Source of the DNA: an uncultured Bacteriovoracaceae bacterium
GTDB lineage: Bacteria; Bdellovibrionota; Bacteriovoracia; Bacteriovoracales; Bacteriovoracaceae
Direction: 5' to 3'
DNA length: 64,000 nucleotides
NCBI GenBank assembly: GCA_937931205.1
Contig: CALHBF010000009.1
Coordinates: 1-64,000 of the forward strand
The notes beneath the pieces were generated by a model, which did not search any database, had not been told where the DNA came from, and worked only from the letters and a program-made list of their open reading frames with translations. Positions 2,899-14,212 of this stretch are shown here, piece by piece. The position numbers were made by a program, and so were the translations under genes. Positions within the stretch are counted from its first letter, which is position 1, and each line of letters begins with the position of its first letter.

Positions 2899-2948
2899 GG
2901 CTTGCTTATTTGCTGAATAATAGGTACATCTAGTATTAATTACTAACC

Positions 2949-3027
2949 GCTAGGGGTGTCTCTCTTTTATGAGAGAGACTGAGAAAGTCCCTTTGAACCT
3001 GATAGAGATAATGCTCGCGCAGGGAAG
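2949..3027 (+). promoter_or_regulatory. TPP (THI-box) riboswitch
   Basis: Conserved THI-box blocks occur in order: CTAGGGGTG (2950-2958), a variable P3 hairpin GTCTCTC...GAGAGAGAC, CTGAGA (2979-2984), TTTGAACCTGAT (2992-3003), and GATAATGCTCGCGCAGGGAAG at the 3' side. The last block contains AGGGAAG (3021-3027), which also serves as the Shine-Dalgarno of the TonB receptor, so TPP binding should block translation. A flanking 12-nt complement (2919-2930 with 3033-3044) could extend the closing helix over the start codon. Confidence 0.93.
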
Positions 3028-3033
3028 CTTATG

Positions 3034-5019
3034 ATGTACCTATTTTTATTATTTTTCATTTCCCATACCCTTTATTCTCAAGATCAGCTTGAAGCCATTG
3101 ATGTTCAGAACTCGCACGTCTCTGAAGATTTTACGGGCATTGATGCCCTGAAAGCTCCTGTTTCTATTCAGTCTTTTGAGAGTAGAAAAATTCAAGAAAA
3201 TCGCCTGAAGACAATTAAAGACATCTCTATTTTAGATGCCTCGGTGACTGACAACTATAGTGGAAGCGGTTATTGGGACTCCCTCAATATTCGCGGTTTC
3301 AATGTTGATAACCGGCGAAATTATTTTCGAAATGGCCTGCGTATAAATGCTCAGACAGTAATCCCATTAGAGAATATGGAGTCGGTTGAAATTATCAAAG
3401 GGTTAGGTGCTTTTCAGACTTCTGGGACAAGTTCAGCAGGAAGTGTGAATCTCAAAACAAAAATAGCGGGAGAGAAACGAAGTCTTCGAGTTGAAGCTAC
3501 TGAGCGTGGCGGTTATTTGGCGCATTTAGATTTTGGTCAGAAAGCAAGTAAGCTGAAGTATCGTTTTAATTTGTTAAATGAGGAAATCAGAAGTGCCTTC
3601 AATAATAATGATGGAACAAGAAATGTGCTGGCAGGAGCTTTCTCTTATGAATTGAGTTCCACTTCAATGCTTGAATTTGAGCTTGAGTGGAGTGAGCGCA
3701 GTCAGACAAGTTTGGCGGCCCAAGGTTTCTGGGGGAATTCACTTCCTAGTCCTAATCGTCAGTTAAATTTGAATAATCAGTCTTGGGCAAAACCGGTTGA
3801 GTTTGAATCTCTCTTTTATTCGGCTAGATATTCTAAGGAACTTCCGAAAGACTGGTTTTTAACAGTGACTGCGGGAAGACAGAGATCAGCAACAGATGAT
3901 CGAATGAGTTATCCGTTCGGGTGCTCACGAGAGAGTTCATGGACTTCATTTTGTCAAAATGGTGATTTTGATGTTTATGATTACCGCAGCGAGAATGAAA
4001 GACGGACAATGGATTCGGCCAAAGTAAGTCTTACGAAGCGTATAGAAGGCGCTGTCTCCCAAGAGCTCTCGCTGAATGTCCGCTATTCTCAAATGAAAGA
4101 GAAGGCAGGGTTTCAGTCATATAATTTTGTTGGTGAAGGAAATCAAGCCGAGAGAAGGTTGCCATCAGATCCAAGGAAAACTGATCCTACACGAAATTTG
4201 AGAGAAAGTGATTTAGAGTTTTTTGTTGTTGATCAGCTTAAATATAAGAATTGGGGACTGTGGCTTGGAGGAAATTTTCAGGTCAGCAGTCGTAAAAGCA
4301 TTCTTAATGATGGGACTGAGAAAAGTACAGTTTATGAAAACTTCATTACTCCTTGGATTTCTCTCACTAGAAAGATTGATGATAGCATTTATTATTTGAG
4401 CTATTCCCAAGGAAAGGAAAGCTGGGTCACTCCCAGTAAGCCGACTTATCAGCAACCTGGAAAAGTTCTGCCTCAAGAAACAACACATCAGTATGAATTA
4501 GGTATTAAAAACAAAAACTTTTCGAGTGCTGTTTTTTATATGAAACGACCTAGACTCTTTGATGATTCACAATCGTTTAAACGTGATGGCTTTTATCAGC
4601 AGTACGGAGTTGAAGGGGCAGGGCACTTCAATTACTACAATTCTCATCATTCTTTGAGTGTGATGTATTTACAGGTAAAGCAATTGGCTTCTGGAGTGAA
4701 TGGTAATTATTCTCCTAATATTCCCGATCTGACTCTTCGATATTTAATGAGTCTTGACCTTCATCCTTTTTCAGTGGGAGTAAGGGGCCAGTACGAGGCG
4801 GCCCGCTTTGCCAGTTATGATAATCAGAACTCTATTCCGGATTGGATTAAGTGGGATATTTTCATTGAGAAGAAATGGAAAGATGTGAAGGGTAAGCTTT
4901 ATGTTGATAATGTTTTCCAAAAAAATTACTGGAGAGAGTCTCCTATTCAGTACGGCCACCACTACCTTTATCAAGGTGCAGGAAGAAGAGTAGGAATCCT
5001 TACAGAATGGACTTTCTAA
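3034..5019 (+). CDS. TonB-dependent outer-membrane receptor, predicted thiamin uptake
   Basis: A TonB-gated outer-membrane transporter of about 660 residues. It has a signal peptide ending near LYSQ, a plug domain (about residues 40-150, with LNIRGFNVDNRRNYFRNG and MESVEIIKGLGAF), and a long aromatic-rich barrel ending in a terminal Phe (GILTEWTF), the usual outer-membrane insertion signal. It belongs to the siderophore-receptor-like branch by plug sequence. Control by a TPP riboswitch argues that the substrate is thiamin or a precursor, as for the riboswitch-linked OMR1 receptors; this is inference. The second ATG (3034) is preferred over 3031 because AGGGAAG ends only three bases before the first. 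Confidence 0.85.
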   Translation: MYLFLLFFISHTLYSQDQLEAIDVQNSHVSEDFTGIDALKAPVSIQSFESRKIQENRLKTIKDISILDASVTDNYSGSGYWDSLNIRGFNVDNRRNYFRNGLRINAQTVIPLENMESVEIIKGLGAFQTSGTSSAGSVNLKTKIAGEKRSLRVEATERGGYLAHLDFGQKASKLKYRFNLLNEEIRSAFNNNDGTRNVLAGAFSYELSSTSMLEFELEWSERSQTSLAAQGFWGNSLPSPNRQLNLNNQSWAKPVEFESLFYSARYSKELPKDWFLTVTAGRQRSATDDRMSYPFGCSRESSWTSFCQNGDFDVYDYRSENERRTMDSAKVSLTKRIEGAVSQELSLNVRYSQMKEKAGFQSYNFVGEGNQAERRLPSDPRKTDPTRNLRESDLEFFVVDQLKYKNWGLWLGGNFQVSSRKSILNDGTEKSTVYENFITPWISLTRKIDDSIYYLSYSQGKESWVTPSKPTYQQPGKVLPQETTHQYELGIKNKNFSSAVFYMKRPRLFDDSQSFKRDGFYQQYGVEGAGHFNYYNSHHSLSVMYLQVKQLASGVNGNYSPNIPDLTLRYLMSLDLHPFSVGVRGQYEAARFASYDNQNSIPDWIKWDIFIEKKWKDVKGKLYVDNVFQKNYWRESPIQYGHHYLYQGAGRRVGILTEWTF

Positions 5020-12828: not shown

Positions 12829-12843
12829 GGGCCTTCTTTTTTT
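12814..12843. terminator. Bidirectional terminator overlapping a stop codon
   Basis: An 11-bp perfect inverted repeat AAGGCCCTCAA / TTGAGGGCCTT followed by CTTTTTTT. It includes the TGA of the flavoprotein gene and abuts the end of the FKBP gene on the other strand. With no unpaired bases at its centre, the innermost pairs must open to form the loop. Confidence 0.85.
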
Positions 12844-13183
12844 AGTCTCTTGTTAGAACTTCAATGAGTTCAACATGGAAAATAAGATTTGAATTGGCCG
12901 GAATAATTCCGCCAACACTGCGATCGCCATAGGCCATATCTGCAGGAATACGAAGTGTTCTTTTCCCACCGACTTTCATGCCAATGATCCCTTGATCCCA
13001 ACCTTTAATCACTCGTCCTGAACCAATCACAAATTGAAAAGGACGGCCTCTATCAATTGATGAATCAAACTTAGTTCCGTTCTCAAGGAAGCCTTCATAG
13101 TGCATTGTTAAAAGTGCGCCTTTAACAGCTTCTTTGCCTTCTCCTGTGAGAGTATCAATCATTTCAAGTGCGGTGATGCTCAT
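12842..13183 (-). CDS. FKBP-type peptidyl-prolyl cis-trans isomerase
   Basis: A single FKBP domain of 113 residues catalysing proline isomerisation. The FKBP landmarks are in order: VTMHYEG-type strand (LLTMHYEGFLENGTKFDSS), RPFQFVIGSGRVIKGWDQGI, MKVGGKRTLRIPADMAYGDRS and IPANSNLIFHVELIEV. The active-site aromatic and Asp residues of the family are present. No signal peptide is seen, so it is cytosolic. It is the last gene of the minus-strand unit that starts at the cobalamin riboswitch, nine bases behind the DUF4430 gene. Confidence 0.92.
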   Translation of the reverse strand: MSITALEMIDTLTGEGKEAVKGALLTMHYEGFLENGTKFDSSIDRGRPFQFVIGSGRVIKGWDQGIIGMKVGGKRTLRIPADMAYGDRSVGGIIPANSNLIFHVELIEVLTRD

Positions 13184-13192
13184 AACTTCCTT

Positions 13193-13630
13193 TTACTTAC
13201 AAAACTGTGGGGATTTAACCTCGTAGGCCGGATTACACATTGAAATCCATCCTTTGTCATACCAAGCATACGCAAAAAACCACTCAATGTGATCCCCATC
13301 ATTCAAAATAATTTCATCTGCGTAAACATCTGGAATTTTGCCATTAACTTTATAACACCAACCGTAACTTCTCATTTGCGTGTCAGAGAGAACTTCCATC
13401 GCATCAAGTCCTACAGGAGTGTTAAAAATGGAATTCATTCCTCTCTCATTTCCTTGAAAAGGAATTCTGTTCTTTTGGAAATAATGAAGAGTGAAGTCTC
13501 CCACTGTTTCAAAATGATTTTGCCCTTCAATAGAAAGCAATGGCTTTTTAGAACAAGCTCCGACAACTTCAAGAGTTGCGGCCATTGAAGATATCGAAAA
13601 GAGAGATAAGAGAAGAAAAAGAATTTTCAT
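13193..13630 (-). CDS. Secreted DUF4430 (transcobalamin C-terminal-like) protein
   Basis: A small exported protein: signal peptide MKILFLLLSLFSISSMA and a mature chain of about 128 residues. The C-terminal half carries the DUF4430 pattern YGWCYKVNGKIPDVYADEIILNDGDHIEWFF. This is the fold that forms the C-terminal, corrinoid-covering domain of eukaryotic transcobalamin and intrinsic factor. Cysteines near the start, in WCYK and at the C-terminus could form disulfides. It lies 13 bases behind the thioesterase gene in a transcript headed by a cobalamin riboswitch, which suggests a role in binding or delivering a corrinoid outside the cytoplasm; this is inference. The domain assignment rests on motif reading only. 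Confidence 0.68.
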   Translation of the reverse strand: MKILFLLLSLFSISSMAATLEVVGACSKKPLLSIEGQNHFETVGDFTLHYFQKNRIPFQGNERGMNSIFNTPVGLDAMEVLSDTQMRSYGWCYKVNGKIPDVYADEIILNDGDHIEWFFAYAWYDKGWISMCNPAYEVKSPQFCK

Positions 13631-13643
13631 AAGGGCTCCAAAA

Positions 13644-14027
13644 TTATTTGACTGAAACTTTATTTTGAGTCACGAAAGTAAACTTGCCATGAAGAGCAAG
13701 AATCCTTTCATCCGTGTACATATCTTCGCGGTAAACATTTACTGCAACATCAAGACTAGTATTGCCGACTCTGGTCACTTTAGCATCTAGCTCAACGAGA
13801 CTGCCTGATGGAATTGGATATTTGAAGTTTACTTTATCACTGCTAACAGTGACCACTTTCTTGCGAGTAAAGCGTGTTGCTGCAATAAAGGCTACTTCAT
13901 CCATCCAAAGAAGTGCTACTCCACCAAAGAGAGTATCGTAATGATTGGTCTCTCCTGGGAAAACAGCTTTAACAACTTTAGTTTGGGCCTGATTGATCCT
14001 GGCAATGATTTCTGGATCTTGTGTCAT
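13644..14027 (-). CDS. Acyl-CoA thioesterase (hotdog fold)
   Basis: A 127-residue hotdog-domain protein of the YciA/BFIT acyl-CoA thioesterase group, which hydrolyses acyl-CoA to free acid and CoA. Visible motifs: VFPGETNHYDTLFGGVALLWMDEVAFIAATRF, with the catalytic Asn/Asp region and the helix of the hotdog fold, then VTVSSDKVNFKYPIPSGSLVELDAKV. GGAGG upstream sets the start at MTQDPE. It is the first gene after the cobalamin riboswitch on this strand. Why a thioesterase should be B12-controlled is not clear; a B12-dependent acyl-CoA pathway is one possibility. Confidence 0.82.
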   Translation of the reverse strand: MTQDPEIIARINQAQTKVVKAVFPGETNHYDTLFGGVALLWMDEVAFIAATRFTRKKVVTVSSDKVNFKYPIPSGSLVELDAKVTRVGNTSLDVAVNVYREDMYTDERILALHGKFTFVTQNKVSVK

Positions 14028-14044
14028 AAAATTCCTCCGCGGGA

Positions 14045-14131
14045 TAGGGTTGAATGCCAAACGAGGGATCGGACTTTACCGTTGCGGGACAGTGCTGGAT
14101 TCTCACCAGACTTCACCTAGAGTGGCTATAT
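14045..14131 (-). promoter_or_regulatory. Cobalamin riboswitch (short form)
   Basis: Read on the minus strand, the leader contains the cobalamin-aptamer core: AGGTGAAGTCTGGTGAGAA, then TCCAGCACTGTCCCGCAACG and GTAAAGTCC. These match the conserved GGTG..AATCC...CTGTCCCGCAACxGT box. The element is short (about 90 nt), closer to the compact class-II/variant forms than the ~200-nt classical form. CCCTC (around 14065-14069) can pair with the GGAGG ribosome site of the thioesterase gene, which would suit translational control. A candidate promoter lies upstream (-35 TTTCAA at 14167-14162, 17-base spacer, -10 TAATAT at 14144-14139); its -35 is poor. Confidence 0.83.
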
Positions 14132-14212
14132 GGGCGGGATATTAGTGCAATAAAATTCAATTTGAAAGCCTTTTATCTGTGGTATGAATTCTTTAATCAA
14201 TGGAGAGGGGTT

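What the first reader, a model, noticed from the sequence alone, without database searches (positions are those of the whole stretch)
12842..14167. Cobalamin riboswitch heads an operon with a secreted transcobalamin-like protein
Seen: a compact cobalamin-aptamer core on the minus strand (CCCGCAACG and GGTGAGAATCC boxes) directly ahead of a thioesterase gene, then, 13 and 9 bases apart, a signal-peptide DUF4430 protein and an FKBP isomerase. Known: DUF4430 is the fold of the C-terminal domain of transcobalamin and intrinsic factor. Inference: the secreted protein captures or hands over a corrinoid outside the cytoplasm and is made when B12 is scarce. No btu genes are beside it, so it may be a stand-alone accessory.
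Basis: partly seen in the sequence, partly recalled or inferred. Interest (0 to 1): 0.75.

Follow-up and report, generated by a model that had tools for sequence, protein, structure and literature searches.

The report
B12 riboswitch controlling an acyl-CoA thioesterase
A vitamin B12-sensing RNA switch appears to control a small enzyme that splits acyl-CoA compounds, and the same pairing recurs in two bacterial phyla, often beside B12-free replacement enzymes, which suggests an overlooked safety valve for times when B12 runs short; the secreted transcobalamin-like protein that drew attention looks like a rare passenger.

Summary
A compact cobalamin riboswitch lies at 14134-14031(-) before a 4HBT thioesterase, a DUF4430 protein and an FKBP. 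It scores 35.0 bits against Rfam AdoCbl-II (cut-off 36.5), and 79.3 bits (E 8e-17) with a model built without it. The interpretation shifts: the conserved partner is the thioesterase, not DUF4430. In 129 family genomes, 23 of 25 close thioesterase orthologs have a cobalamin riboswitch within about 450 bases upstream; only 2 of 28 DUF4430 homologs lie near one. Of 80 named relatives, 25 of 44 Bacteroidota loci have one upstream, 10 with B12-independent MetE between; none of 32 Shewanella/Pseudomonas-type loci does. The ribosome site lies in a covarying hairpin facing the C-rich loop, so B12 should block translation. Best reading: a B12-repressed thioesterase that frees CoA and relieves propionyl-/methylmalonyl-CoA build-up when AdoCbl-dependent mutases stall. 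Mutase genes occur in 25/25 and 23/23 carriers tested, PrpD (2-methylcitrate route) in 0/25 and 0/23; base rates make this weak support. The substrate is untested. Nine literature searches showed no report of the pairing. Corrinoid binding by DUF4430 is unsupported, not excluded.

The parts
14056..14134 (-). Cobalamin aptamer core (AdoCbl-II-like, compact)
   Evidence: RF01689 35.0 bits, E 1e-6; held-out model R2 79.3 bits over 14031-14128
14084..14089 (-). C-rich loop UCCCGC (L5), proposed partner of the platform loop
   Evidence: same six bases in 35 of 35 aligned riboswitches, which a script had picked by patterns that include this stretch; C-rich-loop pseudoknot is the usual AdoCbl mechanism (PMC2258182, passage); the name L5 is recalled
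14033..14044 (-). Expression platform hairpin (P13, name recalled): UCC-[CGCGGA]-GGA; loop and 3' arm hold the ribosome-binding site GGAGG (14038-14034)
   Evidence: closing pair UA 21 / AU 7 / CG 1 / UG 1 / unpaired 5 of 35; rows were chosen by the platform pattern, so the loop itself is no independent evidence
13644..14027 (-). 4HBT hotdog acyl-CoA thioesterase (127 aa), first gene behind the riboswitch
   Evidence: Pfam 4HBT 68.2 bits; profile of 25 orthologs hits solved proteins 2gvh, 2eis, ACOT12 and cytosolic acyl-CoA hydrolases
13193..13630 (-). DUF4430 protein with signal-peptide-like start, 145 aa; second gene, probably a passenger
   Evidence: Pfam PF14478 37.9 bits; four invariant Cys in 24 aligned homologs
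12842..13183 (-). FKBP-type peptidyl-prolyl isomerase, 113 aa; third gene
   Evidence: Pfam FKBP_C 120.4 bits
12814..12835 (.). Palindromic terminator-like hairpin between the operon and the convergent gene
   Evidence: 9-pair stem, 6 G-C; listed for the + strand, the minus-strand tail has four T

Best explanation
A translational OFF riboswitch for cobalamin controls an acyl-CoA thioesterase. When B12 is plentiful the bound aptamer docks its C-rich loop on the platform hairpin loop and hides the ribosome site; when B12 is scarce the thioesterase is made. It then hydrolyses the acyl-CoAs that back up behind idle AdoCbl-dependent mutases (propionyl-, methylmalonyl- or isobutyryl-CoA), releasing CoA and an excretable acid. 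Shown here: the riboswitch, its conserved pairing with the thioesterase in two phyla, co-operonic MetE, class I RNR and uptake-type genes, mutase genes in the carriers. Inferred: direction of switching, substrate, physiological role. DUF4430 and FKBP are lineage-specific riders on the transcript.
For: 23 of 25 orthologs (>=55% identity, 129 family genomes) have a cobalamin-clan match within about 450 bases upstream, 10 of the 25 over the Rfam cut-off. The genome's TonB receptor (BtuB-type) leader has the same platform. Of 80 GTDB loci, a cobalamin riboswitch lies upstream and sense in 25 of 44 Bacteroidota and 2 of 3 Bdellovibrionota; all 25 hits of model R1 at E < 0.05 are upstream and sense; of the 10 of these also given to Rfam, 8 pass its cut-off. 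MetE lies upstream in 14 Bacteroidota loci, 10 with the riboswitch in view. Riboswitch-NrdB-NrdA-thioesterase in L221 (riboswitch by R1 only), riboswitch-TonB receptor-thioesterase in L214, riboswitch-DUF6580-CWC-BtuF-like-thioesterase in L256. Relatives put nrdGD (3 of 40 mapped riboswitches) and BtuB-type receptors (25 of 40) behind such switches. Mutase in 25/25 and 23/23 carriers; PrpD in 0/25 and 0/23; CobS in 5 of 129, not in the window's genome. N28 and D43, catalytic-type residues (role recalled), invariant in 25. Negative control: 5 paralog and 8 mutase loci, 0 R1 hits.
Against: Mutase is present in 123 of 129 family genomes and PrpD in only 8, so neither separates carriers from non-carriers. 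104 of 129 family genomes (many incomplete) show no ortholog at that identity. Shewanella/Pseudomonas-type homologs at 57-65% identity show no riboswitch (0 of 32; R1 on all, Rfam on 27), and 13 of 44 Bacteroidota loci show neither riboswitch nor MetE/RNR upstream. Orthologs L159 and L160 lack it. In L164 and L168 it lies about 300-430 bases off; the platform pattern was found in 18 of the 23 leaders. One covariation measure, further pair types, is no better than shuffles (172 of 500). The best NCBIfam model (YciA) is far below its cut-off (37 of 162 bits), so the substrate is open.
Confidence: 0.55

Rival explanations
1. The operon serves B12 capture: the secreted DUF4430 protein binds a corrinoid, and the thioesterase is incidental.
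For: Pfam DUF4430 match; DUF4430 forms the C-terminal part of transcobalamins (PMC4350170, passage); the order thioesterase-DUF4430 also occurs in G015, with a 4-base overlap.
Against: 2 of 28 homologs near a riboswitch against 23 of 25 thioesterases; no PDB transcobalamin hit; in 7 same-genus loci DUF4430 follows a DsbA-like gene instead (Pfam run on one member).
Confidence: 0.12
2. The thioesterase is a step of an alternative B12-independent route (a beta-oxidation-like propionate shunt, or something next to methionine or DNA-precursor synthesis), not a simple CoA relief valve.
For: Shared operons with MetE and class I RNR, themselves stand-ins for B12 enzymes; isozymes are a known class of cobalamin-regulated genes (PMC3766115, passage).
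Against: In the Bdellovibrionota genomes it is the first gene and the genes behind it vary; the three that I ran in Pfam were a metallophosphatase-type, an acetyltransferase and one without a family. I did not search for shunt genes.
Confidence: 0.2
3. The enzyme acts in B12 handling itself (uptake or remodelling of corrinoids), being regulated with receptor and BtuF-like genes.
For: A TonB receptor and a BtuF-like gene share its operon in L214 and L256 (both below NCBIfam cut-offs).
Against: Profile and family are those of acyl-CoA hydrolases; no thioester step in B12 salvage is known to me.
Confidence: 0.08
4. The pairing is neutral drift: a riboswitch copied from a receptor gene landed before a housekeeping thioesterase.
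For: In the window's genome the receptor and thioesterase leaders share the platform.
Against: Two phyla, different aptamer sizes, several operon layouts; the label is clustered on the tree, 14 changes against 34.7 in shuffles, though shared descent alone would do that.
Confidence: 0.05

Closest known systems
Cobalamin riboswitch, compact AdoCbl-II type (RF01689; clan mate RF00174)
   Same: Core boxes, P4, P6, C-rich loop, ribosome site in the platform hairpin
   Different: Just under the Rfam cut-off; heads a thioesterase rather than synthesis, transport or isozyme genes; ligand preference (Ado-, Me- or hydroxocobalamin) untested
Cobalamin-repressed B12-independent isozymes (metE, nrdAB, nrdDG)
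   Same: Same kind of switch, often same operon
   Different: A thioesterase does not replace a B12 enzyme; it would deal with its backed-up substrates (inference)
Acyl-CoA hydrolases of the 4HBT hotdog family (PDB 2gvh, 2eis, ACOT12, ACOT7, YciA type)
   Same: Profile matches, E 4e-64 for 2gvh, 8e-42 for 2eis, 1e-24 for ACOT12; Pfam 4HBT
   Different: A distinct ~130-residue single-domain subfamily; NCBIfam YciA model 37 bits against cut-off 162
Transcobalamin / intrinsic factor C-terminal domain (DUF4430)
   Same: Pfam match over 38 residues
   Different: No second domain, no PDB profile similarity, rarely tied to a B12 switch
B12-deficiency propionate responses in animals (PMC9418907, seen as search listing only; nematode shunt recalled)
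   Same: Acyl-CoA disposal when the mutase lacks B12
   Different: Different genes and control; analogy only

Membership tests
Cobalamin riboswitch | Covariance-model score at or above the Rfam gathering score | tested here: not met
   35.0 of 36.5 bits RF01689; RF00174 23.9 of 31.5. Leaders of 10 of the 25 orthologs do reach a cut-off
Cobalamin riboswitch | Homology to riboswitches of B12-related genes, judged by a held-out model | tested here: met
   R2: 79.3 bits, E 7.8e-17; its 23 training leaders include 6 of BtuB-type receptors
Cobalamin riboswitch | Conserved helices supported by compensatory changes | tested here: met
   P4, P6, P13 in 35 leaders: 96.2% of cells paired, 47 cells changed on both sides, 0 of 500 shuffles as high, slid partners at most 15; further pair types not above shuffles (172 of 500)
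Cobalamin riboswitch | Binds a cobalamin and changes expression | not testable with these tools
   needs in-line probing and a reporter
4HBT acyl-CoA thioesterase | Hotdog-family profile match over curated cut-off | tested here: met
   68.2 against 20.6 bits; PDB acyl-CoA hydrolases
4HBT acyl-CoA thioesterase | Hydrolysis of an acyl-CoA | not testable with these tools
   needs an enzyme assay
Transcobalamin-type corrinoid binder | DUF4430 domain | tested here: met
   37.9 against 23.8 bits, residues 82-119 of 145; 9 of 24 homologs match at E 0.01
Transcobalamin-type corrinoid binder | Transcobalamin C-terminal fold | tested here: inconclusive
   single-sequence model pLDDT 34.5; no PDB profile hit
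Transcobalamin-type corrinoid binder | Conserved genetic link to a B12 switch | tested here: not met
   2 of 28 homologs

The most novel reading that the evidence does not exclude
Cobalamin regulons contain a fifth functional class beside B12 synthesis, B12 transport, cobalt transport and isozymes: a dedicated acyl-CoA thioesterase that vents the CoA esters trapped behind AdoCbl-dependent mutases. It is found in Bacteroidota and Bdellovibrionota behind riboswitches of different architecture.
Probability: 0.45. Interest if true: 0.75.

Novelty: new variant of a known kind. Interest (0 to 1): 0.6.

Why it matters
How bacteria that take up rather than make B12 cope when their acyl-CoA mutases go idle is, to my knowledge, little studied. 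A B12-repressed thioesterase would be a direct answer, testable in ordinary laboratory Bacteroidota (Pedobacter, Chryseobacterium, Spirosoma relatives), and gives a substrate hypothesis for an unnamed 4HBT subfamily. It also moves the focus from the secreted DUF4430 protein to the first gene.

Tried and rejected
DUF4430 as the point of the operon: dropped. Mutase or PrpD co-occurrence as a discriminating test failed: mutase is near universal and PrpD rare in the family. MFE folding gives no signal. Sigma-70 promoter scan: none found, 3.6 expected in shuffles. A first tree missed 42 of 80 named loci through a too narrow motif and was replaced; that one has 118 columns for 105 rows and resolves few deep forks, so one origin versus several cannot be told, and its six 'B12op' rows (MetE or RNR upstream, no riboswitch in view) were counted as linked. 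Exact pairing of the C-rich loop with the platform loop: GNGG to CCGC fits when N is C or U, but N is A in 18 of 35 and G in 3, so the contact is not settled.

Rows dropped before counts: alignment A3 uses 35 of 39 regex-selected riboswitches (two near-copies, L096 and L103, and two odd rows, L109 and L166, left out). Leaders without the platform pattern or the expected P3-P4 pattern were skipped by the script. Model R1 misses some large aptamers that Rfam finds (L214, L234, L258), so R1 negatives are weaker than Rfam negatives. Mutase and PrpD in Bacteroidota were checked in 23 of the 25 riboswitch-bearing loci's genomes (not L225, L235).

Full report
What is there. On the minus strand a compact cobalamin aptamer (14134-14056) is followed by a ribosome site and a 4HBT thioesterase (13644-14027), a DUF4430 protein with a signal-peptide-like start (13193-13630) and an FKBP (12842-13183), 13 and 9 bases apart. 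Pfam confirms all three proteins. The aptamer falls just short of the Rfam cut-off (35.0 of 36.5 bits; nothing at gathering level), but a model trained on 23 other leaders, without the window, its nearest relative and the genome's second riboswitch, finds it at 79.3 bits with E 7.8e-17. The window's organism is inferred to be a Bacteriovoracaceae-like member of Bdellovibrionota, because the top named thioesterase relative (L202, 68% identity) bears that name.

The same genome has a second cobalamin riboswitch (G000 C5 277746-277873, 41.9 bits, over cut-off) heading a TonB receptor with the same platform ATCCCGCGGAGGA. I call this receptor cluster BtuB-type because its member in L099 has NCBIfam TonB-B12 as best match, though at half the cut-off. 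Among relatives, of 40 mapped riboswitches 25 have a receptor of this cluster as first gene downstream (some followed by BtuF/D/C-like genes, labels below NCBIfam cut-offs), 5 the thioesterase (a sixth as second ORF), 3 nrdG-nrdD, and the other 6 something else or nothing in view.

Which gene is the switch for? In 129 genomes of the family, 25 hold an ortholog of the thioesterase at 55% identity or more; the next homologs are at 40% or less. Loci of 20 of the 25 were scanned with Rfam: 18 have a cobalamin-clan match at E 0.05 or better, 7 over cut-off. The other five (window, G008, G015, G003, G011) were matched, three over cut-off. That makes 23 of 25; L159 and L160 have none. Most leaders abut the gene; in L164 and L168 about 300-430 bases intervene. 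Next genes vary: DUF4430 follows in the window and G015, an FKBP in the window and G075 (first two following ORFs). Conversely, of 28 DUF4430 homologs in 26 of 58 relatives only the window's and G015's lie near a riboswitch (Rfam on 27 loci and on the window; model R1 on 48 loci including 20 wider ones).

Beyond the family. Model R1 plus Rfam put a cobalamin riboswitch upstream and sense in 25 of 44 Bacteroidota and 2 of 3 Bdellovibrionota loci; among 33 Pseudomonadota only 1 has it, a record titled Glaciecola amylolytica whose protein groups with Flavobacteriales. R1 was run on all 80, Rfam at gathering level on 60, including every Bacteroidota locus without an R1 hit and 27 of the 32 other Pseudomonadota. 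All 25 R1 hits at E < 0.05 lie upstream and sense; 10 of these were also given to Rfam and 8 passed its cut-off (not L202, L221). Between riboswitch and thioesterase lie MetE (10 loci with the riboswitch in view: L217, L224, L225, L231, L233, L234, L240, L254, L258, L281; in four more, L204, L207, L238 and L242, MetE begins within about 230 bases of the end of the DNA held and no riboswitch is seen), class I RNR subunits (L221), a TonB receptor (L214), DUF6580-CWC-BtuF-like genes (L256), or a small Cys_rich_CWC protein. Ten of the 11 riboswitch-bearing Bacteroidota loci given to Rfam match the large RF00174 model at 38 to 117 bits, and six Bacteroidota leaders printed lack the compact platform, so the two phyla appear to have paired the same enzyme with different riboswitch forms (inference).

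How it likely works. In 35 aligned leaders (17 thioesterase, 18 other, chosen by the platform pattern, which was found in 18 of the 23 thioesterase leaders) the C-rich loop is the same, and a hairpin of three pairs holds the ribosome site; its closing pair changes between U-A (21), A-U (7) and C-G (1), with one U-G and five unpaired. Four of five covariation measures exceed all 500 shuffles; further pair types do not (172 of 500). Known AdoCbl switches use a ligand-dependent pseudoknot of a C-rich loop with sequences outside the core (PMC2258182, passage). So B12 should repress translation (inference).

What the enzyme does is inferred. Its profile hits acyl-CoA hydrolases. AdoCbl-dependent mutase genes occur in 25 of 25 family carriers (123 of 129 overall) and 23 of 23 Bacteroidota carriers tested (23 of 25 given). 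PrpD of the 2-methylcitrate route is found in 0 of 25 (8 of 129 overall) and 0 of 23. CobS is found in 5 of 129 and not in the window's 86%-complete genome, so these bacteria seem to rely on uptake. This fits a relief valve for acyl-CoA trapped behind idle mutases but does not prove it, since base rates are high or low throughout.

Literature. Nine searches listed no paper that I could see to tie a cobalamin riboswitch to a thioesterase; most listed papers were seen as listings only. Passages of PMC3766115, PMC9723704, PMC2258182, PMC4350170, PMC3953431, PMC8620254 and PMC4465626 were read. PMC3766115 names four classes of cobalamin-regulated genes and holds no 'thioesterase' in its main text; its supplements, and subscription papers such as the classic B12 regulon surveys, were not seen. 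Earlier notice in such a table is possible.

Noticed in passing
window 2942-3042 (+): A TPP riboswitch (66.8 bits) leads a receptor-like ORF (3031-5019; the listed start overlaps the aptamer end), perhaps a thiamine-related TonB importer (not run in Pfam).
   Followed up: no
L167 782-1017 and L173 1286-1486: In two relatives the riboswitch's ribosome site precedes a 7-codon ORF, and the thioesterase starts roughly 60-95 bases after its stop: a possible coupled leader peptide.
   Followed up: no
L226 2767-3369: A Saprospiraceae ORF joins a cysteine-rich N-terminus, by eye like the CWC proteins, to the thioesterase (BLAST with two CWC proteins at 1e-8 did not list it). Elsewhere small CWC proteins are operon neighbours.
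   Followed up: partly
L094, L104, L114: Cobalamin riboswitches lead nrdG-nrdD (anaerobic RNR; L094 NrdD matches TIGR02827 RNR_anaer_Bdell at 954 bits) in relatives.
   Followed up: partly
L136, L138, L139, L141, L145, L147, L149: In these same-genus loci DUF4430 follows a DsbA-like gene and, in six of the seven, directly precedes a ~541-residue protein whose L149 member has no Pfam match; four invariant Cys in DUF4430 hint at disulfide chemistry.
   Followed up: no
L241: The record titled Glaciecola amylolytica carries a riboswitch-CWC-thioesterase locus whose protein groups with Flavobacteriales: transfer, contamination or misnaming.
   Followed up: no
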